64,000 nt of DNA from Paraburkholderia sp. (GTDB taxonomy: Bacteria > Pseudomonadota > Gammaproteobacteria > Burkholderiales > Burkholderiaceae), in assembly GCF_004298475.1 (NCBI RefSeq), contig NZ_SCRP01000016.1, positions 45,742 to 109,741 of the forward strand, given 5' to 3'. This document shows positions 35,311-51,924 of the stretch, piece after piece. Position 1 is the stretch's first letter. Each line of letters begins with the position of its first letter. A model generated the notes under the pieces. That model worked only from the letters and a program-made list of their open reading frames with translations, was not told the DNA's origin and made no database searches. Both the position numbers and the translations under genes were made by a program.

Positions 35311-35316
35311 AGGAAT

Positions 35317-36810: not shown

Positions 36811-37314
36811 ATGTCAGGCATTCCCGCCACCGTGACCAGCACCCCGGAGAGTTTTACACCCGCATTTACGCGGGTGCAGCAGGAGGGCGAGGCAGACTGC
36901 GCCTTCGCTTGCATCGCCATGATCGTCGGCAAGACACTCGACGAGGTGAGAACGGCGGCCATAGAGGCGTTCAGGTTCCCGGCACATCCGCCGCGCTGGA
37001 TTACCGAGGATTTGATCTGCAGCCTGCTGGCGCACTACCAGTACGTCGCCACGGTTTACAAGGAGTTTACTTCCTTCAGCGAATTGCCACCGCTGGCGAT
37101 TCTTCTCACTGACTACTTGCCAGAACTCGAAATGGGTCGCCACGTGATCTACCACCGTGGACGCGCGTCTCATGATCCGAACGTGAACGTGCACTACATA
37201 ATCGACCCGGCGTACTGGATCAGGCCACAGGACCACGTTCGGGCCGCTCTACCGCCAACGGCCTATTTCATCGGCATCCACGCGATGCAGCAGAAAGCGA
37301 AAACCAGCAAGTAA
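36811..37314 (+). CDS. Putative C39-like cysteine peptidase
   Basis: 167 residues. The motif QEGEADCAFACIAMIVG resembles the Q-x5-DC-x2-AC catalytic block of C39 peptidases, with a candidate histidine in GRHVIYHRG and an Asp/Asn-type partner in YIIDPAYW. No transporter domain or signal peptide is present. The ATG at 36811 is favoured by AGGAG 5 nt upstream; an earlier ATG (36748) lacks one. It converges on the XRE regulator gene (11-bp gap). The target is unknown. Confidence 0.65.
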   Translation: MSGIPATVTSTPESFTPAFTRVQQEGEADCAFACIAMIVGKTLDEVRTAAIEAFRFPAHPPRWITEDLICSLLAHYQYVATVYKEFTSFSELPPLAILLTDYLPELEMGRHVIYHRGRASHDPNVNVHYIIDPAYWIRPQDHVRAALPPTAYFIGIHAMQQKAKTSK

Positions 37315-37325
37315 GCACCGGGCCA

Positions 37326-37562
37326 TTACCGGGCACCCTCCGCGACAAGCTCCGCCATCGTGACGCCAAGCGCCTTGGCGATGCGCTCGATATTACCGAT
37401 TGAGATATTGCGCTCACCACGCTCCACCGAACTGATGTAGTTCGGATGCAGGTCGGCCGCTTCGGCCAGTTTTTCCTGTGTCAGTCCCTTCGCGTGGCGG
37501 ATGCGTCGCACATTACTTCCGAACAGCTGCTGGACATCACACTTTTGCGTTGGGTGAGTCAT
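37326..37562 (-). CDS. XRE-family HTH transcriptional regulator
   Basis: 78 residues, essentially one lambda-repressor-like HTH: FGSNVRRIRHAKGLTQEKLAEAADLHPNYISSVERGERNISIGNIERIAKALG. Size and form are like C-type controller proteins of restriction systems or small phage repressors. It is divergent from the secreted-protein gene, with a large inverted repeat between them that is the obvious operator candidate. Confidence 0.92.
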   Translation of the reverse strand: MTHPTQKCDVQQLFGSNVRRIRHAKGLTQEKLAEAADLHPNYISSVERGERNISIGNIERIAKALGVTMAELVAEGAR

Positions 37563-37598
37563 GCCCGGAGTGTCCCGGGGCTGTGACCCTTAATCCAC

Positions 37599-37650
37599 AC
37601 ACTTTGAGTTTGGTTTGGGCTATATTCGCGAATAACCAAACTCAAAGTGT
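37599..37650. promoter_or_regulatory. 17-bp perfect inverted repeat, likely operator of the XRE regulator
   Basis: Arms at 37599-37615 and 37634-37650 (half-site core CACTTTGAGTTTGG) are perfect reverse complements. The 18-bp spacer contains TATATT and its own palindrome ATTCGCGAAT (37625-37634). It lies in the divergent intergenic region, 24 bp before the plus-strand start and 37 bp before the regulator start. Confidence 0.85.
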
Positions 37651-37673
37651 TAACAAACCTTGCGGGGGCATCA

Positions 37674-38534
37674 ATGAGAGGAGTTTTTCTTGCGGCAGTC
37701 CTGGCCGCGTCGGCATCGCTTGCCAGTGCGCAAAATTTTTCCGATCAGGACATCAATCTCATGGCTGCCGGGCAGAAAGCATTCAAGACGTACCGGCAGG
37801 GCGGCATAACCGGGGTCTATACGGCCGTCACCCAGTGCTACGGGCATTTGCGTCCCGGTCAGAAAGCGCTTGAGCGCAGCGTCGAGTTTTGCGTCGCGCT
37901 CGATATCGGCGGGGTGGTCATCGATTCCGAGGTGGCAAGCGCCGAGCATTTCCCGCGCGACCCGCGCTTTATGGAGGTCGCAGCGGCAAACCGCATCAAT
38001 GCGGTTCTGCGGCGTTACGGCATGAGTGCCAGCAACGATGACACCACCGCGTACTTTGCCGCGCGCGTCGGCCGCATACAGAAATACACCAACGACGCAG
38101 CTCAACTCGATTCCCATGCGGTCGGCCAATCGCAGATCGCCCACTATAAAAAGCAGGTCGTGCAGGCAGCGACCAGGGAATGCGATGGCGATACCGGCGA
38201 TGGGGTCGCCACGACGGCGTATTCGGGGAATCTCGCTGGCGTGGGGCCGGTGACCGTCATATCGGCGGGGTCGAACGGCTGTGCGGGTGGGCAGGCTCCG
38301 CGCAACTGGCTCTGGGTATTTTTCGCCGACGGCAGCAGCAGCCAGACGAACCAGCCACCCAATCAACTGGACTCGCTTGCGTTCAGTGACGACCAGATCG
38401 TCGTTAAAAGCCTTGAAGTCGGGCAGGAAGATTCGCCGAACTTCCCGAGCCATTTAACCCAGCTCACCTACAAGGTGAATGGCCGAAAACTGATGCTGGC
38501 GGGCAGCCGATTCCTGGCAATCCGGAAAGAGTAA
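37674..38534 (+). CDS. Secreted hypothetical protein
   Basis: 286 residues with a signal peptide (MRGVFLAAVLAASASLASAQ). The N-terminal domain contains two cysteines, in VTQCYGHLRPGQKALERSVEFC. The C-terminal half is strand-rich, with a Gly/Asn/Ser/Thr stretch and two further cysteines. I recognise no family. GGGGG lies 6-10 nt before the ATG. It is the first gene downstream of the XRE operator. Confidence 0.7.
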   Translation: MRGVFLAAVLAASASLASAQNFSDQDINLMAAGQKAFKTYRQGGITGVYTAVTQCYGHLRPGQKALERSVEFCVALDIGGVVIDSEVASAEHFPRDPRFMEVAAANRINAVLRRYGMSASNDDTTAYFAARVGRIQKYTNDAAQLDSHAVGQSQIAHYKKQVVQAATRECDGDTGDGVATTAYSGNLAGVGPVTVISAGSNGCAGGQAPRNWLWVFFADGSSSQTNQPPNQLDSLAFSDDQIVVKSLEVGQEDSPNFPSHLTQLTYKVNGRKLMLAGSRFLAIRKE

Positions 38535-38552
38535 CTGGAAATTCAAATTACC

Positions 38553-38876
38553 ATGAATCAATTCAAATTCGTTACCGCCGCAATCGTAGGTATCGGCATA
38601 ATCCTTCTGTCTGGGTGCTCAGACGATAAGCCTCATTTTTCTGTGGTGACGAATCCACGGCCGCCAAGTATCAATATCACGGTAACGAGTGACAGGGAAA
38701 CGATTAATGAGGTCATCGTCAATCGAGGTAATTGTGAAATTACGCCCTACGTTGGAGTGAAAGAACCCCTGAAATTCGGGCAAAGGGCCATTATCCTGAC
38801 AGGCATGTGTAACGTGATGGAAGTCGAGGTCAAGGCTGACAGCGGGGACTATACCTACACTTTCAGCCAAAACTGA
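38553..38876 (+). CDS. Putative lipoprotein
   Basis: 107 residues with a lipobox at LLSGC (Cys ~22). The mature part is a small beta-rich domain with two cysteines (GNCEI, GMCNV), which could form a disulfide. It follows the secreted protein by 18 bp and is probably co-transcribed. No family recognised; Phe/Asn-rich and less GC-rich than core genes. Confidence 0.65.
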   Translation: MNQFKFVTAAIVGIGIILLSGCSDDKPHFSVVTNPRPPSINITVTSDRETINEVIVNRGNCEITPYVGVKEPLKFGQRAIILTGMCNVMEVEVKADSGDYTYTFSQN

Positions 38877-38976
38877 ACCAACGAATCCAGCCATAACGCG
38901 TGATGGAAGCCCTGATACGGCGGGTGTTTCCACGTGGATGGCTGACGACCTGCCTACACCAACAGAGACAAGAACA

Positions 38977-39768
38977 ATGAAACGTATTGGATATGCATTG
39001 GGGACCTTGCTCATCGCTATCCCGCTCGTCTCCCTGGCTGAACCGCTTGGCCAGGGCGAACTCGTCAAACTCGACACGCGACCCGGTGTGACGCAAGGCA
39101 TCTTCATCACGACACCGCGGCAGACGCCGCCGAAGGCCGTCATGGTGCTGTATTCGGGGGGAGAGGGCCGCCTGCACCTGGAGGCCGACGGTCCGAGCAA
39201 GTCCCGCGACAACTTCGTGATCCGCACGGCGAGCTACTGGATCGACCACGGCTACGCAGTGGTGCAGGTCGATGTGCCGTCCGATCATTGGCGCGATGGC
39301 CTGAGTGCATATACGCGCCGAACTCCCGATATCCTTGCCGACCAGAAGGTCGTGTCTGCCGAAATTCGCAAGCGCTTCCCCGGCGTGAAGGTCGTGCTTT
39401 ATGGGACGAGTAACGGCACCGCCACCGAGGGCAATATCCTCATGGGCGCGCCGGAATTGGCAGACCTGTACGTGCTGACTTCGCCGGTATCGATTGCCCG
39501 GAAGTACATCGGCATCGCTGATCTGGACGTTCCGCAAGCGTACCGTGACAGGACCATGCTGATGTCCAACGAGAATGACGGGTGCCCCGCAGCCCGGTAT
39601 TCGGGCGCGCAGCGCCTCGTGAGCAAGAACGGCCTGACGCTCATAACCGAGTCTTCAACCGAAGACGGCGGTGAAGAGTGCGGCCCGGAATCGCCGCATG
39701 GATACCTCGGCATCGAGGCCAAGGCCCTGGCCGATTCCGACGCCTGGATCGCATCGAAGCTGAACTGA
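38977..39768 (+). CDS. Secreted alpha/beta hydrolase-like protein
   Basis: 263 residues. A signal peptide (LIAIPLVSLAEP) is followed by an alpha/beta hydrolase pattern: VMVLYSGGEGRLHL, the nucleophile elbow YGTSNGTA (G-x-S-x-G), and a final histidine in ESPHGYLGIE. Substrate unknown. The ATG at 38977 gives a clean signal peptide. Third gene of a secreted/envelope set with the two preceding genes, closed by a terminator. Confidence 0.7.
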   Translation: MKRIGYALGTLLIAIPLVSLAEPLGQGELVKLDTRPGVTQGIFITTPRQTPPKAVMVLYSGGEGRLHLEADGPSKSRDNFVIRTASYWIDHGYAVVQVDVPSDHWRDGLSAYTRRTPDILADQKVVSAEIRKRFPGVKVVLYGTSNGTATEGNILMGAPELADLYVLTSPVSIARKYIGIADLDVPQAYRDRTMLMSNENDGCPAARYSGAQRLVSKNGLTLITESSTEDGGEECGPESPHGYLGIEAKALADSDAWIASKLN

Positions 39769-39866
39769 TCGCGTGCAACACGACAACCTGAATATGGGCG
39801 TGCAATCACGCAATTAAACAACCGGGCCTGATCGCCCAAATCATTCCCGTTACCGTAGCACCAAGC

Positions 39867-39899
39867 CGAAGCCGGAGCGTCATGCTCCGGCTTCGTGCG
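39867..39899 (+). terminator. Terminator after the hydrolase gene
   Basis: CGAAGCCGGAGC (39867-39878) and GCTCCGGCTTCG (39884-39895) form a perfect 12-bp stem with a GTCAT loop. The downstream sequence (TGCGTTTACGG) is weakly T-rich. Confidence 0.65.
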
Positions 39900-39955
39900 T
39901 TTACGGCTCATGAATTCGTGGCGGCGGGTGTTTTCCCATCAATGGAGACCTTTTT

Positions 39956-40291
39956 ATGTCCAGCAACAACTCAGCATCGAGCACGCCAGATGATCGCACT
40001 GACGTGCCGCCGCCGCCGTCCTGGCCGTTCTTCCCGTTGGGGCGAGTCGTTGCGACACGCGGCGTCGCCCTTCATCTCGAACGCCACGGCATCGACGCCG
40101 TGTCTTACCTTCGGATGCATGCCTGGGGGGATTGGGGGGCGATTCCGCCCGAAGACGCGGAGGCAAACCGGCAGGCCGTCGCGCACGGCGGGCGCATCCT
40201 GTCGAGCTATTCGATTGCCAATGAGCGCGTGTGGATCATCACGGAGGCTGATCGATCCGTCACGACGCTCCTCCTACCCGAGGAATACTGA
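39956..40291 (+). CDS. Island-type conserved hypothetical protein
   Basis: 111 residues. The stretch LGRVVATRGVALHLERHGIDAVSYLRMHAWGDWGAIPPEDAEANRQAV ... GGRILSSYSIANERVWIITEADRS recalls small proteins often found in integrative elements of proteobacteria, sometimes mislabelled as restriction subunits. This is from memory. Three bases separate it from the next gene. Confidence 0.7.
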   Translation: MSSNNSASSTPDDRTDVPPPPSWPFFPLGRVVATRGVALHLERHGIDAVSYLRMHAWGDWGAIPPEDAEANRQAVAHGGRILSSYSIANERVWIITEADRSVTTLLLPEEY

Positions 40292-40293
40292 TT

Positions 40294-40716
40294 ATGAGCA
40301 GCATTCACCCTGCCGCGCCCGAAATGGCCTTAACGAACCGGCTGCGCCGCCCGCTGCGCGACATGCTGGCGCTTCTGCCTCAGTTGCCTACGACGGAGAC
40401 TGGTGTGCCCGACTATGCCGAAGCGGATGCGGACCTGCTGGTGAGCTTGGCCGAGTCGGCTGAACTCGTGCTCCAGATCATTCACGACGGCGTGTCATCC
40501 ATCGGGTTGCTGAATGCGCTCACGGCGCAACGGATCGCGGACGGCGAACTACGCGCCGAACACATCGTAGCCGTTGGCCGGTTACAGGTTGAACTCGGTG
40601 AGGCACTTGCATACGCCTACGCGCTTGCCGTGGCCTGCCGTCGCCATACGGCTGATTACATCGCCCGTGGTACTGGCAGTACCGGCCAGCGTCAGCCCGG
40701 AGGGCGCTGCACATGA
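40294..40716 (+). CDS. Hypothetical protein
   Basis: 140 residues, mostly alpha-helical by composition, with no signal or membrane segment. It is coupled to both neighbours (2-bp gap upstream, ATGA overlap downstream), so it belongs to a small operon at 39956-41255. Family not recognised. Confidence 0.6.
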   Translation: MSSIHPAAPEMALTNRLRRPLRDMLALLPQLPTTETGVPDYAEADADLLVSLAESAELVLQIIHDGVSSIGLLNALTAQRIADGELRAEHIVAVGRLQVELGEALAYAYALAVACRRHTADYIARGTGSTGQRQPGGRCT

Positions 40717-41255
40717 GGCTCGTGACCCATTCGCAACAGGCGTGGTTTTTCACGCGGTTGATGAAGCGAAGGCTCCGCAGCAAGCGGCCTGCCCGCGAGA
40801 GGGAGCCGACACGCGGCCTGCACGAGCGCGCCGGGGGCAAGGCGTCCGCCATGCGCAGCGAGCACCAGCAGCACAGCCTGCGGCGACGGGCGTTTCTGGC
40901 ATGGGCCAACCGGCACGCGATGATACCCGGGGCAACCGTCGCGCTACGCCAAACGCGAATTGACATGGTTTTGCGCGTTGACCGGCCACCCGTAGCGTTT
41001 TTTGTCTCGGCGACCTGCATTCGCGTATCGACGTTCCGTGCGGGCCGCTTCTGCGAATTGCGAGTCTTCGAATCCGATCCGCGCAAGGTCGCAGGCGGCT
41101 ACGTCGATGATGGCCTGTTGCCAGAGCACGTCGTTGTGTACCACGACCTGTACCGGCTGTGGTGGTACGAGGTCTTCGCACCCTTCCAGCGATGGTTCGA
41201 GGACGAGTTTGCGAAGGCGATCGCTTCAACATCATCGGACGAATCGCTCCCCTGA
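40713..41255 (+). CDS. Hypothetical protein
   Basis: 180 residues. A strongly basic N-terminal ~55 residues (RLMKRRLRSKRPARERE) precedes a domain with alternating strands and helices (MVLRVDRPPVAFFVSATCIRV; YHDLYRLWWYEVFAPFQRWFEDEF). Possibly nucleic-acid binding through the basic tail; this is inference. Overlaps the preceding gene by 4 bp. Confidence 0.55.
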   Translation: MRLVTHSQQAWFFTRLMKRRLRSKRPAREREPTRGLHERAGGKASAMRSEHQQHSLRRRAFLAWANRHAMIPGATVALRQTRIDMVLRVDRPPVAFFVSATCIRVSTFRAGRFCELRVFESDPRKVAGGYVDDGLLPEHVVVYHDLYRLWWYEVFAPFQRWFEDEFAKAIASTSSDESLP

Positions 41256-41284
41256 TTCGCCCACGTACACGGGAACACGTAGAA

Positions 41285-41368
41285 ATGACTGAAAGTGAAG
41301 ACATGGCGCTCGGACGCGCCGCGCAGTGGATGCTTGAGCGGTTTGATGCACCGCTCGGCCCGCAATGA
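41285..41368 (+). CDS. Possible 27-residue ORF before the resolvase
   Basis: MTESEDMALGRAAQWMLERF... lies between two tightly spaced genes on the same strand. There is no clear ribosome binding site. It may be a real small gene or the 3' remnant of a larger one. Confidence 0.25.
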   Translation: MTESEDMALGRAAQWMLERFDAPLGPQ

Positions 41369-41381
41369 CAGAGGGAGTGCC

Positions 41382-41957
41382 ATGAGCATCATTTCGTATC
41401 TGCGCGTATCGACGGCCGGGCAAACCGTGGAAAATCAGAGGCAGGCCATAGCCGCCGCGGGCCTGAAAACCGGGAGGGAATTTATCGATGCTGCGACGAG
41501 TGGGACGACCGCCGCCGACAGCCGGGAGGGCTGGGCCGCGTGTGCGCAATATCTTCGCGAGGGCGACACCCTCGTTGTGTATGCACTCGACCGGCTGGGC
41601 CGTAGCACCGTTGACGTACTCTCGACCATTAATGCGTTGCACGAGCGTGGGGTGCGACTCATCCTGATCCAGCAGCAATTCGACACTGGTACGCCAGCGG
41701 GCAAGCTGGCACTGACGATGTTCGCGGCGTTTGCCGAGTTCGAGAACGGCATACGCAAGGCGCGCCAGCGCGAGGGGATTGCCCGCGCCCGCGCGGAGGG
41801 AGGAAAGTATCGGGGCCGTAGACCCAAACTCACGGCAGGGCAGCAGGCTGAGCTAAGACAGCGTTTTGAGGCGGGCGAGAACCGCAGCGCGCTCGCGCGG
41901 GACTTTGGCATTGATCGCGTTACGGTCCACAGGTATTGCGCTGGCGTTGGCGATTGA
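41382..41957 (+). CDS. Serine recombinase (resolvase/invertase family)
   Basis: 191 residues. Catalytic Ser10 lies in YLRVSTAGQTVENQ; the conserved region VYALDRLGRSTVDVLSTI and LTMFAAFAEFENG are typical. A C-terminal HTH (RSALARDFGIDRVTVHRY) completes the small-resolvase plan. AGAGGGAG precedes the start. Tn3/Hin-type by length. No transposase or obvious invertible segment is seen, so its target is unknown. Confidence 0.93.
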   Translation: MSIISYLRVSTAGQTVENQRQAIAAAGLKTGREFIDAATSGTTAADSREGWAACAQYLREGDTLVVYALDRLGRSTVDVLSTINALHERGVRLILIQQQFDTGTPAGKLALTMFAAFAEFENGIRKARQREGIARARAEGGKYRGRRPKLTAGQQAELRQRFEAGENRSALARDFGIDRVTVHRYCAGVGD

Positions 41958-42275
41958 GACGTGTTTGTCTCCGTTCGGGCCCGAAGGGGACGCTGACTCC
42001 GCCGCGAGCCGCAAGACTGCTGCCGGATATTGACCTGCCATCCGAATTTTCAACGTATCAGGAAAAAAGGGCGCTACGTCACCGCGGCGCCCTCTAATCA
42101 GGCTCATCGCCGACCAGTTGCAGTCCTTCGACTCCGCCTTTTATGGGCGCCCTCGGGCCCGAAGTGATCCTCGTCGCCACCTCCCGCCGGTCCGTCGAGC
42201 ATCAACGCTTACAATATGGCGACCAACATCAGCCACTAATCTCGGCGGCACGAAGAAGATACGGGGAATCGACAG
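41958..42275. other. Gap after the resolvase containing a repeated 10-12 bp palindrome
   Basis: TTCGGGCCCGAA (41974-41985) and TCGGGCCCGA (42153-42162) occur ~180 bp apart in the only non-coding stretch beside the resolvase gene. They could be crossover or accessory sites for the enzyme. No gene was found here. Confidence 0.35.
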
Positions 42276-43772
42276 ATGGCCACAAAACGAACGCTAAGTG
42301 TCACGCAGCTCGATCTAGACGTCACCAATCCGCGAGCTAAGCCGGAAGATAATCAGACTGACGCTCTGCGCGGACTGCTCGCAGTGGAGCGGGATGGTGA
42401 GAAAGTCTACGAGCTCGCCAAGGACATCTGCGAGACAGAGATGCTCGATCCAGGCGATCGGCTGTACGTGGTCCCATCAGAGTCAAAAAATCGCTTCACA
42501 GTGCTCGATGGTAATCGCCGCCTGGCCGCGCTACGCTTGCTCTCCCAGCCGGGACTTATTGAGCGTGACGACGTGGGGATTACACCTACATTAAAAAATC
42601 GCTTCAAACGACTACAAACTGACTACGCAAATCGTTGGCCTACCGAGGTCGACGTCGTTGTCTTCGACAACCGTGATGCGGCGGACCATTTCATTCGGTT
42701 GCGACACACTGGGGAGAACGCAGGGGCAGGCCGCAGCGCTTGGTCGGCCTTGCAAATTGCCCGTTTCGACAATACCGGACTTTGGCAGTGTCTCGATCGC
42801 CTCCGCGCTGCCAAAGAACTCAGCTTGGCGGTTTTGAGCGAACTCGACCGTAGTGAATTTAATATCACGAGCTTCGATCGTGTGGTGACCTCCGAAGAGT
42901 TCCAGCGACGGTTCGGATGCTCGATAGGGAAGAATACCTTCGATGCCGGTGCTGGTGCCCCTCGAGCGCTAAAGGCTCTCGCGCGGGTCGCCAATGATGT
43001 GACTACTGGCCGCGTGCATTCTCGGGGGGAATTCGCAGAAGCGAAGTCCATGGGGCCTTACATCGATGAGGTTGAGAAAGGTGTAAATGACCATTTTGCT
43101 CAAACGGCGGCACCCGCGGCTGGAAATCCTGCAAAGCCGCCGCCCTCACAGCCGAGTGCCGGCTCAGGTGGTTCGCACACAACGTTCATACCGCCTGCGC
43201 CTCCCGCGGCTGGCACCGGAAGTTCCGGCGGAATGGGAAGCTCTGCGGGAACGGCAAGCGCGGGAGGCTCGGGAGCAACCCTTCCGCCCGTACGGAAGAA
43301 ACGCGTGTCGAAATTCCTCCTGGCAAAACATGAGCTCACAACGGTGACCAATCCCAAATGCAGGGAAATCGTTTCTGAGCTGAAACAAACAGTGCCGGTG
43401 CAATATGCACCTTACGGATGTGCCCTGCTCATGCGCTGCCTCCAAGAGCTGACGGCAGAGATTTACGTATCGACTGTGATTAACCAGAAGCCAACGAACC
43501 GCAGCGCGAACATTGACGCAGCCGCAAAGCACCTCCTAGGAAATTCGCATCCGACAGATCCAGGCGATAAGCGAGACATCGCCGAGAACTTCAACCAATT
43601 CCGGCAGACCTATGAGGAATTGTCGTCGACTGCGCACAGCAAGCTGACTGATCTCAGCGCTGACCACCTTCGCGCAACATGGAATAATCTAGGCGGCGGA
43701 ATGGAACTTTTGTGGAAAAGAATCCATGCTGCTGAAGTCGCTCGCGCGCAGAAAGCAACGGCGGTCGCCTAA
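42276..43772 (+). CDS. ParB/sulfiredoxin-fold protein with an unknown C-terminal domain
   Basis: 498 residues. The N-terminal ~110 residues hold a ParB-like core: VTQLDLDVTNPRAK, then LYVVPSESKNRFTVLDGNRRLAALRLL. The DGNRR motif is the ParB nucleotide-binding signature. Residues ~110-280 include a helical HTH-like region. A Pro/Gly/Ser/Ala-rich linker (~285-345) joins a C-terminal helical domain. It is 17 bp upstream of an adenine methyltransferase gene, so it is not a chromosome-partitioning ParB. Role inferred: DNA-binding partner of the methyltransferase, possibly defence. Confidence 0.75.
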   Translation: MATKRTLSVTQLDLDVTNPRAKPEDNQTDALRGLLAVERDGEKVYELAKDICETEMLDPGDRLYVVPSESKNRFTVLDGNRRLAALRLLSQPGLIERDDVGITPTLKNRFKRLQTDYANRWPTEVDVVVFDNRDAADHFIRLRHTGENAGAGRSAWSALQIARFDNTGLWQCLDRLRAAKELSLAVLSELDRSEFNITSFDRVVTSEEFQRRFGCSIGKNTFDAGAGAPRALKALARVANDVTTGRVHSRGEFAEAKSMGPYIDEVEKGVNDHFAQTAAPAAGNPAKPPPSQPSAGSGGSHTTFIPPAPPAAGTGSSGGMGSSAGTASAGGSGATLPPVRKKRVSKFLLAKHELTTVTNPKCREIVSELKQTVPVQYAPYGCALLMRCLQELTAEIYVSTVINQKPTNRSANIDAAAKHLLGNSHPTDPGDKRDIAENFNQFRQTYEELSSTAHSKLTDLSADHLRATWNNLGGGMELLWKRIHAAEVARAQKATAVA

Positions 43773-43789
43773 GTAATACATAAGCATCA

Positions 43790-44680
43790 ATGGCCAATTG
43801 CACCCCTCTTCGGTACCCAGGCGGCAAGGCACGCTTGCGCCCCTACCTCGAACGATTGATCGAGCAAAACCACCTGTACGATGCTCACTACGTCGAGCCG
43901 TTCTGCGGTGGAGCTGGCTTGGCGCTCGAATTACTCATGAACTACACGGTCAGTACGATCCATATAAACGACCTTGATCGGGCCGTTTACGCGTTCTGGT
44001 ATAGCGCAACGAGACGCACAGACGCGTTGTGCACACGAATCGGCGACACGCCCTGCTCGATCGACACGTGGCACGAGCAACGTGCTGTCTGGGTGAACCG
44101 TGCAAAATCGAATTTGCTCGACCTTGCTTTTGCAACTTTTTTTCTTAATCGAACCAACAGATCAGGAATACTTGATGCGGGTGTCATTGGCGGGAAAAAC
44201 CAGACGGGACGATGGAAACTGGATGCCCGCTACAACCGTGACCGGTTGATCGAGCGAATCGAAGCAATAGGGCGGTTTCGTTCGCGGATACACGTCTATA
44301 ACCAAGAGGCCGTTGAATTCTTGAAAGCCCTGCAACCGGACCTGCCGCGCAAGTCGTTGATCTATCTCGACCCACCCTATGTGGAAAAGGGCCCGGGCCT
44401 GTACCTGAACCACTATGGCGAAGAAGATCATCGCTCGCTGGCTAAATGGGTGGCGACCAAGCTGCGCCGTCCCTGGATGGTCTCGTATGACGCGCATCCA
44501 CTTATCCGCGAATGCTATGGCGGCCACACCGAAGGCGAAATGAATTTTCATTACAGCGCGCACGGGAACGCACGCCGTGGCACCGAACTCGTATATTTTT
44601 CGGAGGGACTTGTTCCCCCCGACATGAGCCATCGGTCATCACGCTACCATCAACCATGGGAAGCCTACGAGGCGGCATAA
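43790..44680 (+). CDS. DNA adenine methyltransferase, D12 class (Dam-like)
   Basis: 296 residues. LRYPGGKARL is the Dam N terminus and EPFCGGAGLALEL is the AdoMet-binding motif I. FFLNRTNRSGI follows, and LIYLDPPY (DPPY at residues 194-197) is catalytic motif IV. It methylates N6 of adenine; the recognition site cannot be read. It directly follows the ParB-like gene and faces the minus-strand PIN-like/HNH pair, a layout suggestive of restriction-modification. Confidence 0.92.
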   Translation: MANCTPLRYPGGKARLRPYLERLIEQNHLYDAHYVEPFCGGAGLALELLMNYTVSTIHINDLDRAVYAFWYSATRRTDALCTRIGDTPCSIDTWHEQRAVWVNRAKSNLLDLAFATFFLNRTNRSGILDAGVIGGKNQTGRWKLDARYNRDRLIERIEAIGRFRSRIHVYNQEAVEFLKALQPDLPRKSLIYLDPPYVEKGPGLYLNHYGEEDHRSLAKWVATKLRRPWMVSYDAHPLIRECYGGHTEGEMNFHYSAHGNARRGTELVYFSEGLVPPDMSHRSSRYHQPWEAYEAA

Positions 44681-44908
44681 GAACGGCGCACGGTTGCATG
44701 AGAGTGCAACAAAATGCACGCTTCCCGCATGTCGCCCACCGCCTGCGGGCCCCGAATCGTCTTGCGGACACCCGCACACGGTGCCGCCGACTGCAAGACG
44801 ACTCGGCAACCACTGGGCGCAAAAAGCCCAACATCGGGCGGGTTACTCTGGTGGTAGAGCCTTGCGCGAGCGTGATGGCTTTGACCTAGTGTTCGTCGAC
44901 GAATATCA

Positions 44909-45748
44909 CTACTTCACGGCAGCATCTTCAAGCCGCTGCAGCAGTGCAATCGACTCCGTAGCGGCAAGCTCGGGAAAAAGCCGGAGGCCGTACCGCATCT
45001 GCATCGCCAGCCCGCCGGCGCTCGTGAATCGCGGACGCACGATGTCCACGTGTTTCAGCACGTCCCGCAAACCTTCGTCAAGTGTGTGGAACCGGACCTT
45101 GATGGGTCTTGAAATCTGTCGAGCTGCTGCCTTGACCATGCCAACGCGGGATATTGCGTGGACATCCGAGAGAACGTTGTAGGCGTTCGGCTCCGTGGGC
45201 TTGATCACCTTGCGCGCAGCGTCGTTCCCGTAAAGGCAGGCAAGGAAGAGCATCACGATCGCGTCGTTGGCGGCCAGGCTGGTTTCTAGCGCGAGCGAAA
45301 CGAGTTCGTTTTCGACGCCACGACGCTTGCGCGCGGCGATCTTCTGAACAACGAGCGGCGCTGCCTTTACGAGGAATTCCGCCCGTTCATCCCACTGGCT
45401 TTCTCGCGAGCCGGTAAAGATCTGGGCCACCAAGTTACTGAGCACCCGGAGATAGACCGAATCTGTGCGTGCCCGCAAAAAGAACTCTGCGATCGCATCT
45501 GTTTCCTCAATAAGGCAGTCAACCTTTTCCCCGATGCTATCTGCGTTACCGCGCGCCCCTTCCATGATGGACAGCAGTGCGCTGATGCTGTGCTGCGGGA
45601 CATCGAGCGCCCGCAACGTTACAAGGTCGGCCTGCTTCTTGGCGTTTGGTGGCTCTCTGCCGGCGACGGCGTCCTTGATGAGCGAGACAGCGTTGCGGTC
45701 GAGCAGAAAGAGGGTCTCAGTTTCCATAGGCGGCGGATCGTCAGGCAT
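44909..45748 (-). CDS. Hypothetical protein with PIN-like features
   Basis: 279 residues. The N terminus ETLFLLDRNAVSLIKDAVAG puts a conserved-looking Asp after a hydrophobic strand, as in PIN nucleases. A Glu in LLSIMEGARG and an Asp in LAANDAIVMLFLACL follow. I infer a PIN-like fold with low certainty. The start at 45748 overlaps the stop of the upstream HNH gene (ATGCCTGA), so the two are translated together. The track-length upstream extension is unneeded. Confidence 0.6.
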   Translation of the reverse strand: MPDDPPPMETETLFLLDRNAVSLIKDAVAGREPPNAKKQADLVTLRALDVPQHSISALLSIMEGARGNADSIGEKVDCLIEETDAIAEFFLRARTDSVYLRVLSNLVAQIFTGSRESQWDERAEFLVKAAPLVVQKIAARKRRGVENELVSLALETSLAANDAIVMLFLACLYGNDAARKVIKPTEPNAYNVLSDVHAISRVGMVKAAARQISRPIKVRFHTLDEGLRDVLKHVDIVRPRFTSAGGLAMQMRYGLRLFPELAATESIALLQRLEDAAVK

Positions 45749-46499
45749 CCAGCGCGTCTTCGCGCGCAAGGAACAGGTCGTGGTGGCGCTTCAACCGATC
45801 CGGGGACGGCTGATCGTCCGGATCGGCAGGAAGCGCAACGAGGCGGCGGCCGCGGTACTGCGCGTACTCCGTCCGTTCCAGTGACCGCGAAACGGCCACT
45901 CGCCCGCCCGCATCGACGGCTATCAGGTGCAGATCGAACAGCGTGTGAATATCGGCGCGCAGCGCGAGCCCGTTGGAGGTCGTGTAGTTCGTTTCGAGTG
46001 CATGCGGGACAATGTGAGCCGCCTCGAGCAGCGGTTCGACCGTTGAGCCGCTGACGGCGCAGGTGCTGTCGTAGGCGCTGAGAAGACGGTCGCGGAATTC
46101 GGGCTGGCCACGGCGGGTCTTGATGGCGACGAGTTGCCGGTTCTCACCGTCCTTGCTGTCGTCGGCGGTGCCGTCCGCCGCCGCGTCGTCACTGGCCGCT
46201 AACGCGGCAGCTTCGTCTGCAGGCTCGGCGTCCGCTTGAGGTCCGTCAGGTGGTACGGACGCGAATCGGCGAAAGTCCACGTACTGTTGCTCGAGGTTGT
46301 GGCCGACCGTCCGCCATCCTGCGCGTTGCCACGCCACGGCGTGGACGTGCGAGTCCGTGTTGCTCCAGAACGGCGGGTGCTCGTAAGCGGAGGGGGGCAG
46401 CCCCTTCGGAAGCATAGTGTTGATCTCTTCAAAGGTGAGCCGGACGGTATCGCCGGTCAGGCTGCGCAGATGCGCTTCAAGGGCGTCGTATTTCGCCAT
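45741..46499 (-). CDS. HNH endonuclease with N-terminal DUF7662-like domain
   Basis: 252 residues from MAKYDALEAHL, the start typical of this N-terminal domain; an upstream ATG at 46556 adds 19 residues. The domain LTFEEINTMLPKGLPPSAYEHPPFW ... HAVAWQRAGWRTV matches what I remember as DUF7662. An acidic Ala-rich linker follows, then an HNH_2-type nuclease: STCAVSG, LLEAAHIVPH, TTSNGLALRADIHTLFDLHLI. Probably a DNA nuclease. Coupled to the PIN-like gene and convergent with the methyltransferase. Confidence 0.85.
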   Translation of the reverse strand: MAKYDALEAHLRSLTGDTVRLTFEEINTMLPKGLPPSAYEHPPFWSNTDSHVHAVAWQRAGWRTVGHNLEQQYVDFRRFASVPPDGPQADAEPADEAAALAASDDAAADGTADDSKDGENRQLVAIKTRRGQPEFRDRLLSAYDSTCAVSGSTVEPLLEAAHIVPHALETNYTTSNGLALRADIHTLFDLHLIAVDAGGRVAVSRSLERTEYAQYRGRRLVALPADPDDQPSPDRLKRHHDLFLAREDALDA

Positions 46500-46852
46500 G
46501 TCGTGATGGGTAGCAGCGCTGGTCCGCTGGAGGATGGGCTTCGGAATGGACAGCATAAGGGTAAGGGTGAATGAGATCTGATGGGAATAACAGCATCACC
46601 CGCAGCGTGGCGCGCGAAAACTCTTCCACACCCTTGAACAACCCCCACCCCCGTCCTAACGCGCGTGCAGGGGCCGCCGTTACCGCCGGCCGAACCGTAT
46701 TGAACGGCCATGCGCGAACCTAACTGCGTCCTTGTGTGGTGTACCGCACAAAGTAGAAAGCGCATGCAAATACCCGTCGCCTATGCTTCGCGACGGCTCC
46801 AAGGGCGGAGCCACCATGTCCCTAAGGCTTCCATGCGAACTAGGAGAACAAA
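46500..46852. other. Intergenic region between the HNH and cupin genes
   Basis: Divergent promoter region of the HNH gene (minus) and the cupin gene (plus). AGGAGAAC precedes the cupin ATG. No other gene or repeat seen. Confidence 0.5.
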
Positions 46853-47185
46853 ATGGAGATAAAGAACTACAAAGACCTGACATATACGCCGCTCTATGAT
46901 GGCGTGAGCGCGTCAGAAACGTTTGCGTTCAACGGATTTGAAGCGAAGGTAATTCGCTACGAGCCCGGTGCGAGGGCGCCACGGCACAACCACAGCGGTG
47001 ACAACCTGAAAGTGGTTCTGCAGGGCGAATTGCGCTTCAATGGCCAGACGACGGGGCACGTCGGAGCGATGTATCCATGCAGCGCACAGGAAGGGTATTG
47101 GCTGGAGGCGTTGCCGGAGACTTATGTCCTGCTGGTGCAGGAACCGGGCACGAAGACGGTCCTCATTGACGAGCCGACCGAGTGA
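46853..47185 (+). CDS. Small cupin-domain protein
   Basis: 110 residues, a single cupin barrel. The metal-site motif is PGARAPRHNHSGDNLKVVLQGELRF, with two histidines before a variable acid position, followed by the second motif around PETYVLLVQEPG. AGGAGAAC is 5 nt before the ATG. Function unknown; single-domain cupins are enzymes or binding proteins. It ends 100 bp before a 30-bp perfect palindrome. Confidence 0.85.
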   Translation: MEIKNYKDLTYTPLYDGVSASETFAFNGFEAKVIRYEPGARAPRHNHSGDNLKVVLQGELRFNGQTTGHVGAMYPCSAQEGYWLEALPETYVLLVQEPGTKTVLIDEPTE

Positions 47186-47905
47186 TCCCCTGCTTCCAGT
47201 GGCGGCAGCCATGGGAGCGGCCACCAACGACAGAGACGTGAGGCATCACCAGCCCGGCTTCGCCCGGGTTTGTTTGCAAACGCCTCAATGCCGCTAACTC
47301 GAGTTAGCGGCATTGCATTTTATGCAGTGCGGTCAGACAGATCTGCAGCAAGGTCATAAATCGCAGTTCCGCGCTGGTGGTGAAGCCGAAATCGCTCTCG
47401 GGGCCACAGCGATCGGCCGATGACCAAAGGGGGAACGGTCGTTCGGATGTCCGTCTTTGCTCGGTTGAGAATGGCCGGACCTGGCCCGACTGCCGCCGAC
47501 TGATTCGAGCAACGCTCGACCACTGCCGTTGCATTTGGCTTTACCGATACGCCACACCCGAAACTGCGTGTCGCACTGTATCGAAAACTGTTGAATAACG
47601 GCGGTTGCTGTTGCAATACCACTTCGAGACCGTATCGCAATGATGCTGGCCGAGCGTTAATCGAATCGGTAGGCGGCCGTCGGCCGTTGAGGGGTCTTTC
47701 ATGCAAAGGGGCGCTAGGACCCTCAGACGGCAGCTCCACTCGGCAACCCAAATCCAACAACAACTATCGAACGTCAGCAATCCACCCATCCGAACGGTTA
47801 CGGTTGGACGAGTGGTATTGGACAGTTTATGCATGCGCTGTCATGATCTGCGGCACTAAAGCAACCTGCCGGCGTCCATAGTCGGATTGAGACAGAACGA
47901 GAAAA
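47186..47905. other. 720-bp non-coding stretch with repeat-like segments
   Basis: After the palindrome there is no convincing gene on either strand. Phrases such as GGTCGTTCGGATGTCCGTC and AATGGCCGGACCTGGCCCGACTGC resemble repeat-like intergenic sequence I associate with beta-proteobacterial genomes. Broken reading frames suggest eroded material. Confidence 0.45.
47286..47315. repeat. 30-bp perfect palindrome
   Basis: CAATGCCGCTAACTC joined directly to its reverse complement GAGTTAGCGGCATTG, with no spacer. It may act as a terminator for the cupin gene, or be an operator or resolution-type site. Confidence 0.9.
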
Positions 47906-48502
47906 ATGAAAGTCCTAGAAGACATCACACCCTTCAAACTTATTACGCTCTTAGTGACGGTGGCCGGGGCGGTAAGTGCAGCCAGCGTTGCTGCAACTTG
48001 GCAGTTTTGTCAAAAAACGCAGTCTGACGAGCTGCAAGGCTATAAGGCGGCGCAGGAACTACACCTTAAGGATGCTATTTCGTCCCTTTCGAGCTACGCC
48101 GAGGCCGCAAAGCTAACGTCTGACGAGCGAGCAAGACTAACCGCCTTAGATAGGCAGCTCCCGGCTCTGATGAAGGCGAACACAGATATGAAAACGAGGC
48201 TCGATGAAGTGACGCGTGACCGCGACAGCCTCAAAGTTACTGTGAGTTCGATGCTCCAAAAAAATACGGAAATCGAGGTGCCTGTTGGCGAGGCGCACTG
48301 GATTGTTCCGAACTTGGTCACGATCGGTGTAACTTCCGTCGATAGAAGCTATATTGAGGCGACCTTCAACGGGGCACCGCATCTGCTTGACGTGGGCGGC
48401 CAACTACCCTTCGATCTGGCTGGCAAACGGTACACCGTTACGCTGACCAAAATCGAACCGAGTGGAGCGACGTTCGTCGTAACTCTACCGGTCGCGGGCT
48501 GA
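47906..48502 (+). CDS. Membrane-anchored coiled-coil hypothetical protein
   Basis: 198 residues. One N-terminal membrane segment (LITLLVTVAGAVSAASVAATW) is followed by a charged helical region (~30-110) likely to be a coiled coil, then a beta-rich C-terminal domain (VGVTSVDRSYIEATFNGAPHLLDVGG). No recognised family. It is AT-richer than core genes. Confidence 0.6.
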   Translation: MKVLEDITPFKLITLLVTVAGAVSAASVAATWQFCQKTQSDELQGYKAAQELHLKDAISSLSSYAEAAKLTSDERARLTALDRQLPALMKANTDMKTRLDEVTRDRDSLKVTVSSMLQKNTEIEVPVGEAHWIVPNLVTIGVTSVDRSYIEATFNGAPHLLDVGGQLPFDLAGKRYTVTLTKIEPSGATFVVTLPVAG

Positions 48503-48584
48503 GGCATTTAGATCGGCGAACACAAGTCATCCACGAAGCGTGAACATATAACGGCGGCAGCCAAGGACGACCTTTCGATTTGTT

Positions 48585-49493
48585 ATGGGGTTGAGTCACG
48601 CACGGCGATGCGGTTACTCTATGCACGCAGACGACAACCGACTTCTCGCGTGCAACATGCTGATCAAACTCCCGGAGCACGACGTTTCAAGAAGACTGGC
48701 TATTGCAGGGTGGATGCTATTTCCCCGGCCAGAAGATGACGATTTGAGACGCCTGTACCGTTCCGCGATTCAGCACGTTCGCGTTATGCATATCCTGAAA
48801 GACGCGGGCCAGTCAATTGACCCAGCAGAACAGAAATATAAATGGGTCAAATCCGGGGGCGAAATGATTGCGATTGAACAAAATACCCCGGACCTATCGG
48901 CTAAAGAAGCCGGGCCTGCCTTGATCGGATCGCCGGATAAAATCGTTGAATTCTTCGAGGATTACGAAAATTTCTTGCGACGCGCAGATATCGATCTCTT
49001 ATTCAGGAAAGGAGTTGTTTCGGGGTTAATTCTGCTTGTCTGTTGCTCTTTTCAGAATAAATTTGTGAGGCGATATGGTGATGGAAAGGCTGGGGCTCAA
49101 AAAGCCGTGGCCGAAATGACAAAAATCGGGTTGACTTTGGTCAGGGAGTATTTCGGGGATTTCGATGGCGTAGCCCATTTGTGGGCGTCTTGGTTGCTGC
49201 GGAAATTTAAGGATGCCGATTTGCGTGTGGACCGAGAAATGCTCAGGGGATTGGGGAGTAGGATTTCAATCGATTTTATGGGGAATGTCACTGTTAGTGA
49301 AATTCTGGATGGCGCCAAATCGGCCCTTGTTTTCGGGCGAGGCAAGCTTAATACCGGAGTTGCTATCCTGGAGGGAGTGGATTCCATTGAATTCGATTGG
49401 CCCGAAATTTCTTTCGGTCTGGCGGATGAGTTGCCTTCTGCGCTCGTTGACGTGTTCGAGCAATTCAGGCCAGAAAGCAAGCTGAGGCGGTAG
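48585..49493 (+). CDS. Hypothetical protein
   Basis: 302 residues, no signal peptide; one hydrophobic stretch (GVVSGLILLVCCSFQNKF). I recognise no domain. Base composition and codon use (many AAA, GAT, ATT) differ clearly from the chromosomal genes, a sign of transfer. The true start may be ATG 48621 (MHADDNRLL). Confidence 0.55.
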   Translation: MGLSHARRCGYSMHADDNRLLACNMLIKLPEHDVSRRLAIAGWMLFPRPEDDDLRRLYRSAIQHVRVMHILKDAGQSIDPAEQKYKWVKSGGEMIAIEQNTPDLSAKEAGPALIGSPDKIVEFFEDYENFLRRADIDLLFRKGVVSGLILLVCCSFQNKFVRRYGDGKAGAQKAVAEMTKIGLTLVREYFGDFDGVAHLWASWLLRKFKDADLRVDREMLRGLGSRISIDFMGNVTVSEILDGAKSALVFGRGKLNTGVAILEGVDSIEFDWPEISFGLADELPSALVDVFEQFRPESKLRR

Positions 49494-49606
49494 GGGGTTT
49501 TGGTGTGTCAGCGTGCCTGATACAGGTTACATGCGTGTCTCCGAAGAATAAGCTGCGTCTTGTGCAATCCGCACAGCCAACTGAAGAAGCAAGGAGATGC
49601 CGCAGT

Positions 49607-49807
49607 ATGAGCAGAAACTGGTTTGCCCTGATCAAAAAATCGGAAGTGAAATCCTTGACCGGTATGAGTCCGGCTTATATGTACGCTCTTGTCAAAAAAG
49701 GACTATTCCCGTCCCCGATTAAAAACGGCCGTTCAAGTTTCTGGGTTTATGGTGAGGTCATTGAGTGGATCGAGCTTCGTCGTAAAGAGCGAGGTGAGGC
49801 ACATTAA
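49607..49807 (+). CDS. AlpA-family DNA-binding regulator
   Basis: 66 residues. A winged MerR-like HTH, IKKSEVKSLTGMSPAYMYALVKKGLFPSPIKNGRSSFWVYGEVIEWIELRRKER, matches AlpA/excisionase-type regulators of P4-like elements. AAGGAG is 11 nt before the ATG. In such islands AlpA controls integrase or excision genes. It precedes the presumptive replication module. Confidence 0.85.
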   Translation: MSRNWFALIKKSEVKSLTGMSPAYMYALVKKGLFPSPIKNGRSSFWVYGEVIEWIELRRKERGEAH

Positions 49808-49862
49808 TATCGTTCCTATTGAAATGATCGTGCTGACTATCCGCGGCGTCGGGTTGGCAGGG

Positions 49863-49897
49863 CTGAAAAATGCACGCAGAAATGGTGCATTTTTCAG
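49863..49897 (+). terminator. 13-bp perfect hairpin downstream of the AlpA-like gene
   Basis: CTGAAAAATGCAC (49863-49875) and GTGCATTTTTCAG (49885-49897) with a 9-nt loop. The right arm itself carries a T run. It may terminate the AlpA transcript or act as an attenuator. Confidence 0.55.
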
Positions 49898-49921
49898 TTC
49901 TGGTCGGACTGAACAGTGTGC

Positions 49922-50062
49922 GTGAAAGCCGTGTATTTTTCGGTCAGCACCATGCCGAAAAACGCGCGTCAAGGCCGCGAAGTTTTCGTCGCGGGTATGT
50001 GCGGGAAGCTCGTGACGCTGCGCCACGCGCCAGACCTTCGCATCCAGCCGTTGGTCGCGTAG
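49922..50062 (+). CDS. Possible 46-residue ORF
   Basis: GTG-started frame (KAVYFSVSTMPKNARQGREVFVAGMCGKL...) between the AlpA-like and replication genes, a position where P4-like elements carry small inhibitor genes. Another frame (49870-50178) overlaps it, and neither has a clear ribosome binding site. Confidence 0.25.
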   Translation: MKAVYFSVSTMPKNARQGREVFVAGMCGKLVTLRHAPDLRIQPLVA

Positions 50063-50174
50063 GCGCCCTGCAAAAAAGGCTCAGAGGTAGCTCTTTGAGC
50101 GGCTTTCAGCGGTCGAGCGGAACCGAAAAATGCAGCAATAGTAACTATTACACTAATCAGCCTACAGCTCACCA

Positions 50175-50297
50175 GTAGCCAACCCTCACGTACAGCTAGC
50201 CAAGCAGTATCAAGCTTCAGTGTGAGGGTACATAAGTATCGGCTACATAGCGCTGGACAGTTCCAGTGTGTGGACCAGTAGTCGTAGGGGTAGCTAC
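50175..50297 (+). other. Hairpin cluster, candidate replication origin or control RNA
   Basis: Nested inverted repeats GTAGCC (50175-50180)/GGCTAC (50241-50246) and ACCCTCAC (50182-50189)/GTGAGGGT (50222-50229) are followed by CTGGA/TCCAG (50253-50266) and the palindrome GTAGCTAC (50290-50297). They lie immediately upstream of the replication-protein gene. Confidence 0.4.
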
Positions 50298-50346
50298 TTG
50301 CCGCGGATAATCAGCGTGCAGTCACCTTATAACCAAGGAAACTTGC

Positions 50347-51678
50347 ATGTGTGATTCAATGCAAATATTTGTTGGCCTCGCACCGGATATGCCCGACGAC
50401 GAGTACGAGGCGTGCCGCTTTCCATGGGAGCCTGAAGGATCTAATGGTGTCCGTGGAGAGTTCTATGAGTTTGAGATGAAAAGTCCGATCACTGGCGCCG
50501 GATTTAAAATCAAGGCAGTTGGCGTAGGTGGTATCCGGCATGGCCGTATTGGCGGATACTGGCTCAGCGCCAATATCCCCGCTTGTGTGGTCGGGCATAA
50601 CCGGGAGCTAGTTAATGGCGTGTATTGGGCTGCAAAAATATGCTTTGCGCTTCTCCGGAACTTTCTTGCTAGCCGTGGCTGCACTGTCAAAGGCTTGTCG
50701 TATATTGAGTGGGGAAACGTTTTTATTGGCCCATTCACGCTGACCTATTTGGAAGAGTGCGAAAGTAGGGATGCCGCGCTTGAGTTGCTGAACGATATTA
50801 GACAGCACGTTGAGGCAGTTCTTAATCATGGCCCGCACTCGCGGCCAGGAATGAAGGCTGCTTACGTAAAGCCGGATGGTGCGGAATGGCCCGAGGATGT
50901 TTTCACGCTGTATATTCGGGATCGAGAATTCGGGATTGCCCTTTATGTGAAACAGCCCGGTGTGGCGAAGGCATTTTCGAGGGAGATTGATGAGCCGGAA
51001 CTAGAATCCGAGGTGGCCGAACGGTCAGGGCGTACTGTGCGAATAGAGGTCACGCCGCACAAAGCGTGGCTGGCAGAAAATGACCTCGACAAGCCGGAGA
51101 ATTGGCGTAATAACCCTGATGCCTATAAGAAGGTGTTCGGTTTAATGAGGGTGAAAATTCAATTAGGTCGGTCGTGGAGGGTCAAGCGAATGCAGAAAAC
51201 GTCTGTCAGAAATTTATCGTTGTCACAGGATGATAAAACCTGTCTCCTTCTGCATCTTTCAGGGAAGGACCCTGGCGATTATCCGGTGCTGAATGTGTAT
51301 CCAGATGCGAACGCGAGAAGCAAGCGCTTTTCTGCGATTCGCAAGCGGGTCTTTGACGAAACCGGCATCGACCTGCGTATTCCGTGGAGGGTGCAGCAAG
51401 CAGGGGTGCGCCCGGGGCTGGCTAGTGTGTTCGAGTATCCGGGTGAGTTCGAGCCGCACGAGCACCTCCGGACCGTCGTCTACTCGAAGACGACTGCCCC
51501 TGCGGCCTACGAGCGCTTGGAGGAACTGACCGCTGAACTGCTGCGCGCGGGGGCTCACTCCGGTGCCGATGAGGCGCAGGGTGCCAGCGGCGAATCCGCC
51601 GACGTTGTAGATGACTGGTCGGACCCGGTGCCAAAGCAGGGCGCATTCGATGGCTGGCAAGATGAGTACGCTGACTGA
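50347..51678 (+). CDS. Phage/plasmid replication protein, gene II/X-like
   Basis: 443 residues. The central VVGHNRELVNGVYWAAKICFALLRNFLASRG and TLTYLEECESRDAALELL blocks, a hydrophilic core (YIRDREFGIALYVKQ) and the domain RTVRIEVTPHKAWLAENDLDKPENWRN fit the gene II/X replication proteins of filamentous phages and related plasmids, as I remember them. Such proteins nick the origin for rolling-circle replication. The C-terminal ~50 residues are acidic and low-complexity. Assignment is moderate; it could be another island replication protein. Confidence 0.6.
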   Translation: MCDSMQIFVGLAPDMPDDEYEACRFPWEPEGSNGVRGEFYEFEMKSPITGAGFKIKAVGVGGIRHGRIGGYWLSANIPACVVGHNRELVNGVYWAAKICFALLRNFLASRGCTVKGLSYIEWGNVFIGPFTLTYLEECESRDAALELLNDIRQHVEAVLNHGPHSRPGMKAAYVKPDGAEWPEDVFTLYIRDREFGIALYVKQPGVAKAFSREIDEPELESEVAERSGRTVRIEVTPHKAWLAENDLDKPENWRNNPDAYKKVFGLMRVKIQLGRSWRVKRMQKTSVRNLSLSQDDKTCLLLHLSGKDPGDYPVLNVYPDANARSKRFSAIRKRVFDETGIDLRIPWRVQQAGVRPGLASVFEYPGEFEPHEHLRTVVYSKTTAPAAYERLEELTAELLRAGAHSGADEAQGASGESADVVDDWSDPVPKQGAFDGWQDEYAD

Positions 51679-51686
51679 ACGACGAT

Positions 51687-51725
51687 GGACATGACGCGAG
51701 CGAATGTGATGATTGCGTCATGTCC
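51687..51725 (+). terminator. Hairpin after the replication gene
   Basis: GGACATGACGC (51687-51697) and GCGTCATGTCC (51715-51725) form an 11-bp perfect stem, 9 bp after the stop codon. There is no T run, so it could instead be a protein-binding or replication site. Confidence 0.5.
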
Positions 51726-51874: not shown

Positions 51875-51924
51875 TTTTGGGATCGAAATTGCCGAAAGCC
51901 GCGCCAAGTGACGGGTTTGGTTCA

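What the first reader, a model, noticed from the sequence alone, without database searches (positions are those of the whole stretch)
42276..46499. Candidate undescribed defence cluster: ParB-like + Dam-like methyltransferase facing PIN-like + HNH nuclease
Two coupled gene pairs converge inside an integrative island. The first is a ParB-fold protein (DGNRR motif) with an unknown C-terminal domain, directly upstream of a D12 adenine methyltransferase. The second is an HNH endonuclease with a DUF7662-like N-terminal domain overlapping a PIN-like gene. A methyltransferase with nucleases in an island is the usual look of restriction or defence, but I know of no named system with this composition. 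It may be one four-gene system or two neighbouring two-gene systems; the convergent layout cannot decide.
Basis: partly seen in the sequence, partly recalled or inferred. Interest (0 to 1): 0.8.

Follow-up and report, generated by a model that had tools for sequence, protein, structure and literature searches.

The report
PD-lambda-5 defence pair beside uncharacterised nucleases
Half of this supposed new four-gene defence system is a copy of an anti-phage system already found in E. coli prophages, and the other half, an uncharacterised pair of nuclease-like genes, looks like a separate cassette that happens to sit beside it on a mobile island.

Summary
The four genes exist and are intact. The ParB-like and D12 methyltransferase genes are not undescribed: they match PADLOC's PD-Lambda-5_A (837 bits) and PD-Lambda-5_B (381 bits), an experimentally found anti-phage system (PMC9519451). 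This pair travels without the nuclease pair: a ParB-like relative lies beside the methyltransferase in 14 of the 17 strongest other loci of a 369-genome sample, and an HNH or PIN-like relative in 0 of 17. The HNH (DUF7662 + HNH_2) and PIN-like genes also occur together with no PD-lambda-5 relative nearby, on a Paraburkholderia plasmid and in two Burkholderia genomes, and each occurs without the other nearby. So the window holds two neighbouring modules. All four genes sit in a 16.8-kb element at tRNA-Thr with an imperfect att copy at 51925-51944; a close relative lacks it, its synteny resuming at 52038. Verdict: the first half is a new member of a known kind, the second an open, modest candidate.

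The parts
42276..43772 (+). PD-lambda-5 component A: ParB/Srx-like N-terminal half with DGNRR motif, low-complexity linker, conserved C-terminal region
   Evidence: PADLOC PDLC04012 837 bits over residues 1-495; PHROG 9592, 161 bits, unknown function; G79-N80-R81-R82, R387, E391, H454, W469 conserved among 19 aligned sequences, the window's included
43790..44680 (+). PD-lambda-5 component B: D12-class adenine-N6 DNA methyltransferase with DPPY motif
   Evidence: PADLOC PDLC04018 381 bits; Pfam PF02086 66.9 bits
44909..45727 (-). PIN-like protein (272 aa from the ATG; 286 aa if the TTG at 45769 is used)
   Evidence: nine-sequence alignment with invariant D24, E70, D202, T229-x-D231 (numbering of the 286-aa form); no match over a cut-off in Pfam or NCBIfam, none in PADLOC or PHROGs
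45741..46499 (-). DUF7662 + HNH_2 endonuclease, first gene of the HNH/PIN-like pair
   Evidence: Pfam PF24698 and PF13391 over cut-off; only PDB relative at E 0.1 an HNH endonuclease, 6yex, residues 104-207, E 7.8e-8
35130..51944 (.). integrative element at tRNA-Thr(TGT) that carries both modules
   Evidence: 20-base repeat 35130-35149 / 51925-51944, 18 of 20 identical, reached in 0 of 2000 mononucleotide shuffles of 1 kb (blastn-short E 0.062 in 11 kb); synteny with a close relative breaks after 35229 and resumes at 52038
35197..36543 (+). tyrosine integrase of the element
   Evidence: Pfam Phage_integrase, Phage_int_M, Arm-DNA-bind_3
41295..41957 (+). serine resolvase next to the PD-lambda-5 pair
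   Evidence: Pfam Resolvase 138 bits

Best explanation
Two separate cargo modules lie side by side in one tRNA-Thr integrative element. Module 1 (42276-44680) is a PD-lambda-5 system. Its methyltransferase most likely puts N6-methyladenine on the host's own sites. Its ParB-like protein most likely senses DNA lacking that mark, or an attack on the mark, through the ParB/Srx-like half, and acts against the phage or the cell through that half or its C-terminal region. Shown: the family match and the conserved pairing. Inferred: every step of the mechanism (I would give this scheme 0.4). Module 2 (44909-46499) is an HNH DNA nuclease with a DUF7662 domain of unknown role, probably a target reader, co-oriented with a PIN-like protein that is probably an RNase-type effector. 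Its roles are inferred from motifs and neighbours (0.35). Module 2 is not a part of module 1.
For:: A matches 26 PADLOC families at E up to 1, the 25 shown all PD-Lambda-5_A, the best at 837 bits; B matches PD-Lambda-5_B at 381 bits. [quoted passage not shown]: of the 17 strongest other B loci, 14 hold an A relative beside B (one weak, E 3e-8) and 0 of 17 hold a C or D relative in the 3.3-13 kb fetched; relatives at 67-68% (A) and 81-83% (B) in Burkholderia multivorans and two viral contigs have no C or D in the stretch held; the HNH/PIN-like pair stands without A and B in the stretches held of plasmid pOLGA2 and two Burkholderia genomes; one search lists no A on pOLGA2 at all.
Against: No activity was tested. 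In 3 of the 17 loci no A was found. The window copy lies in an integrative element, not in a recognisable prophage. The original E. coli PD-lambda-5 proteins were not compared directly; the filing rests on PADLOC's models. The ParB fold is weakly supported by sequence (E 0.024). Flanks were short, so partners elsewhere in those genomes were not excluded, except A on pOLGA2. Neighbouring modules may still cooperate; sequence cannot exclude it.
Confidence: 0.87

Rival explanations
1. One four-gene defence system: the methyltransferase marks self, the ParB-like protein regulates, the HNH and PIN-like proteins cut DNA and RNA.
For: Convergent adjacency in one element with 228 bases between stop codons; all parts are of kinds known from defence.
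Against: 0 of 17 other strong PD-lambda-5_B loci hold a C or D relative. Besides the window, three records (two of them near copies of each other) hold the HNH/PIN-like pair, and none of the three holds A or B in the stretch fetched.
Confidence: 0.04
2. The HNH gene is the restriction enzyme of the methyltransferase, i.e. a type II restriction-modification system with a control protein.
For: HNH nuclease and methyltransferase are near neighbours; a PADLOC type II methyltransferase model also matches B at 306 bits.
Against: Same separability: in the seven loci no B relative lies near a D relative, and B stands with A and not with D.
Confidence: 0.04
3. The PIN-like protein is a stand-alone toxin or effector, and the HNH gene a chance or transient upstream neighbour in one lineage.
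For: Of 8 close PIN-like loci, 4 have no D relative in the stretch held; several more distant relatives lie beside SIR2, caspase and Lamassu-like MBL, type I RM, MazEF, or (one of the close ones) AAA_13 genes instead. The tree asks for two changes of the D label and leaves one origin neither shown nor excluded.
Against: The pair is kept in order with short gaps (13 or 25 bases) in loci whose proteins differ by about 34-41%.
Confidence: 0.4

Closest known systems
PD-lambda-5 (Vassallo et al. 2022, PMC9519451)
   Same: Both components by PADLOC model, adjacent, same strand, A upstream of B
   Different: Carried by a tRNA-Thr integrative element here, not by a P2-like prophage; carriage on genomic islands is itself already in print for Pseudomonas (PMC12629846, passages). 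Activity of this copy untested
HNH endonucleases of the phosphorothioation-dependent type (NF045808) and PDB 6yex
   Same: C-terminal HNH region similar (49.6 bits; E 7.8e-8)
   Different: Below the NF045808 cut-off of 180 bits; the N terminus is DUF7662 and not a known modified-base reader
PIN-domain toxins (VapC, PF01850)
   Same: Order and kind of four acidic residues, D...E...D...TxD (the PIN order is recalled)
   Different: 272 aa against about 130; about 130 residues between second and third motif; no profile match; no antitoxin-like partner recognised by eye

Membership tests
PD-lambda-5 | component A matches PD-Lambda-5_A models | tested here: met
   837 bits, residues 1-495 of 498
PD-lambda-5 | component B matches PD-Lambda-5_B model and has a D12 methyltransferase domain | tested here: met
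   381 bits; PF02086 66.9 bits
PD-lambda-5 | A and B adjacent as a conserved pair | tested here: met
   17-base gap in the window; A relative beside B in 14 of 17 other loci, though in L111 the genes converge and in L112 a weak A relative lies after B
PD-lambda-5 | protection against phage | not testable with these tools
   needs plaque assays
PD-lambda-5 | carried by a P2-like prophage (usual, not required) | tested here: not met
   tRNA-Thr element in which I saw no phage structural gene by eye or among the island genes scanned; relatives L013 and L036 lie beside genes that I read by eye as P2-like portal and terminase
PIN-domain nuclease | four conserved acidic residues in the PIN order | tested here: met
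   invariant in 9 of 9 aligned sequences; the PIN order is recalled
PIN-domain nuclease | profile match to a PIN family | tested here: not met
   no PIN family among the six Pfam families that the 9 members match at E up to 1; hhalign against 23 VapC-like rows, probability 2.4% over 17 columns (alignment A1) and 0.6% (A6)
PIN-domain nuclease | PIN fold | not tested
modification-dependent (type IV-like) HNH restriction enzyme | HNH catalytic domain | tested here: met
   PF13391 49.8 bits, cut-off 21
modification-dependent (type IV-like) HNH restriction enzyme | known modified-base reader domain | tested here: not met
   only DUF7662 and HNH_2 found; NF045808 49.6 bits against a cut-off of 180

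The most novel reading that the evidence does not exclude
The DUF7662-HNH plus PIN-like pair is an undescribed two-gene anti-phage module in Burkholderiaceae: DUF7662 reads a feature of invading DNA, HNH cuts it, and the PIN-like protein, an effector family that no searched library names and that also sits alone or beside other defence genes in several proteobacteria, cleaves RNA to stop the infected cell.
Probability: 0.3. Interest if true: 0.55.

Novelty: new member of a known kind. Interest (0 to 1): 0.3.

Why it matters
It removes a false lead (an undescribed four-gene system) and adds a Burkholderiaceae copy of PD-lambda-5 in a tRNA-Thr integrative element; island carriage as such is already reported for Pseudomonas (PMC12629846). 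It leaves one testable remainder: a large PIN-like protein family that no searched library names and that turns up among defence genes, sometimes behind a DUF7662-HNH nuclease.

Tried and rejected
Four-gene system: rejected on co-occurrence. HNH as the restriction enzyme of the methyltransferase: disfavoured for the same reason. PIN membership by profile: failed. The PIN set gave 23 rows from 22 of the 30 loci L127-L156; one row (L145 minus) is probably a wrong frame, so that test is rough. No PDB match for the PIN-like family at E up to 1. No phage record with the PIN-like protein at E 1e-3 (none of 50,697 records) and no viral-contig relative in a pattern scan. Promoter- and terminator-like sites around the cluster were no more than in shuffles.

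Literature: in the open PMC library no paper has the term DUF7662 (0), none has 'HNH endonuclease' + 'PIN-like' + 'defense island' (0), none has 'ParB-like' + 'nuclease' + 'Mrr' + 'methyltransferase' + 'prophage' (0). Three have 'HNH' + 'PIN domain' + 'anti-phage' + 'two-gene' and three 'methyltransferase' + 'ParB-like' + 'anti-phage' + 'prophage'; of these six I saw the listing only. PD-lambda-5 is named in 11 papers. I read section 7 and passages of PMC9519451 and passages of PMC10799925, PMC12629846 and PMC10482375; of the other seven only the listing. I saw no mechanistic study of PD-lambda-5 among those passages and listings; most subscription papers and all bioRxiv preprints are not held.

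Full report
Observation. ParB-like A runs 42276-43772 (+), methyltransferase B 43790-44680 (+), PIN-like C 44909-45727 (-), HNH D 45741-46499 (-). The claimed overlap of C and D needs a TTG start for C; the ATG at 45727 fits the three D-bearing relatives, which have 25-base gaps between the two genes.

Identity of the first pair. Against PADLOC's library A matches 26 families at E up to 1; the 25 shown are all PD-Lambda-5_A, the best at 837 bits over nearly its whole length. B matches PD-Lambda-5_B at 381 bits. Pfam gives B a D12 methyltransferase domain at 66.9 bits. PD-lambda-5 was found by functional selection in E. coli. PMC9519451 (section 7 and passages read; [quoted passage not shown] PMC10482375 (passage read) notes that PD-lambda-5 tends to be prophage-encoded and was found in a P2-like prophage; PMC12629846 (passages) finds it enriched in one hotspot of Pseudomonas genomic islands. 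So the pair is known, on islands too.

The first pair travels alone. In a sample of 369 genomes of the class, 84 have a match to the PD-Lambda-5_B model at E 0.001; 18 genomes, the window's own included, have one over 300 bits, and many of the weaker ones are probably other methyltransferases. I fetched the 17 besides the window's own. A profile of A (five sequences) found an A relative beside B in 14 of 17; in L112 it is weak (E 3e-8) and lies after B, in L111 the two genes converge, and in L104 it is cut by the contig end. Profiles of C and D found nothing in any of 17. Stretches were 3.3 to 13 kb. Closer relatives, at 67-68% for A and 81-83% for B, stand in Burkholderia multivorans (L013) and in two viral contigs (L036, L037) with no C or D in the stretch held; in L013 and L036 the neighbours include genes that I read by eye as P2-like portal and terminase. 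In the viral contig L040 B also faces A. Among 59 genomes drawn as relatives, the window's own included, A occurs in the window's own only.

The second pair travels alone too. Among 398 genomes of the family, C matches in 8: the window's own, four near full length at 50-58% identity, and three by short or weak matches. A scan of genome contigs gave six loci. Putting these together with the plasmid hit and dropping duplicates of the same place (L016-L019, L023-L026), there are eight close C loci. D lies directly upstream in four (window, L005, L030, L031) and has no relative in the stretch held of four (L032, L033, L034, L035). L005 and L030 are near copies (C 97.6%, D 100%), so the count of distinct places is three of seven. 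None of the three other D-bearing records has A or B in the stretch held (6.6 to 13.7 kb), and a search of all plasmids with A lists no match on pOLGA2. The tree of C does not settle whether the pairing arose once: it asks for two changes of the label, and 3% of 200 bootstrap trees have one.

D without C. D matches in 39 of 398 family genomes at E 1e-10, mostly by the HNH part only. I fetched seven of these places; none has a C relative: L071 has a D relative over almost the whole length, L072 a remnant, L073-L077 longer proteins that match D's N-terminal and HNH parts with other sequence between. In the plasmid relative L014, of the same longer form, Pfam confirms DUF7662 and HNH_2.

What C and D may be. 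D has DUF7662 and HNH_2 over cut-off; its HNH part resembles a family of phosphorothioation-dependent restriction enzymes (49.6 bits, cut-off 180) and PDB 6yex, so it is HNH-like but not a member of NF045808. C has nine invariant columns among nine sequences, the others 18-59% identical to the window's: L23, D24, E70, K190, N198, D202, T229, D231, L234. The order D, E, D, TxD is that of PIN nucleases (recalled), but no PIN family is among the Pfam hits, no PDB chain is hit at E up to 1, and a profile comparison with 23 VapC-like rows aligned only the LLDxN stretch, at 2.4% probability. So PIN-like is a lead. Relatives of C lie near SIR2 genes (L006, L008), a caspase and an MBL gene (L007, where the MBL gene matches PADLOC LmuA at 238 bits; L012 by annotation), type I RM (L011), MazEF (L009) and an AAA_13 gene matching PADLOC PDC-S06 (L025). 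L026 has an HTH gene and an NTP_transf_8 gene that PADLOC does not list; one neighbour in L024 gave no hit; L035 was read by eye only and showed nothing obvious; L003 and L004 are too short to tell. This is guilt by association only, without a control for how often such genes lie near any accessory gene.

Mechanism. For A+B: methylation by B of host sites is inferred from its domain; the use of a host without mrr in the published work fits a methylating enzyme, which is my inference. A has G79, N80, R81 and R82 conserved in 19 of 19 aligned sequences (the window's and 18 relatives; L104, L015 and L037 were left out) and a C-terminal region with R387 (18 of 19), E391 (15), H454 (18) and W469 (16). 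The latter recalls HEPN-like helical domains, but the canonical R-x4-6-H (recalled) is not conserved, so I do not file it there. The ParB reading gets E 0.024 for PDB 6ryk and 0.14 for a Noc protein. Which part of A acts, and on what, is unknown.

The island. The close relative G010 aligns at 96% up to 35229 and again at 93% from 52038, with 6.1 kb of unmatched DNA between; G009 and G013 also have unmatched DNA (6.3 and 3.0 kb) after the same tRNA-Thr and match again only near 54.9-55.0 kb. A copy of the tRNA's 3' end, 18 of 20 bases, lies at 51925-51944 (blastn-short E 0.062 in 11 kb, reached in 0 of 2000 mononucleotide shuffles of 1 kb around the expected end). The element is thus about 16.8 kb and the site looks like an insertion hotspot.

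Verdict. A+B is a new member of a known kind. C+D is a separate, unnamed nuclease-like pair whose defence role is plausible and untested. The four-gene reading is not supported.

Noticed in passing
window 35080-52038: tRNA-Thr(TGT) looks like an insertion hotspot: three relatives of the genus carry other DNA (3.0-6.3 kb) at the same place.
   Followed up: yes
L007 2277-6906 and L012 1897-6525: In two Rhizobium plasmids a relative of the PIN-like gene (partial in L012) follows a caspase, an unknown and an MBL gene on one strand; in L007 the MBL gene matches PADLOC LmuA.
   Followed up: partly
window 48585-49493 and 50347-51678: Two genes in the low-G+C part of the island (about 51-55%) with no match in Pfam, PHROGs or PADLOC.
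   Followed up: partly
L040 5001-7401 and L111 4549-6847: PD-lambda-5 relatives in which the methyltransferase gene is convergent with the ParB-like gene, so the pair need not be one operon.
   Followed up: no
L071 3675-6685: A DUF7662-HNH-like gene without C, near another protein with a short PIN-like N-terminal motif (read by eye) that tblastn with C does not match.
   Followed up: no
window 46853-47185: Small cupin-like gene (below Pfam cut-offs) upstream of and divergent from the HNH gene.
   Followed up: no
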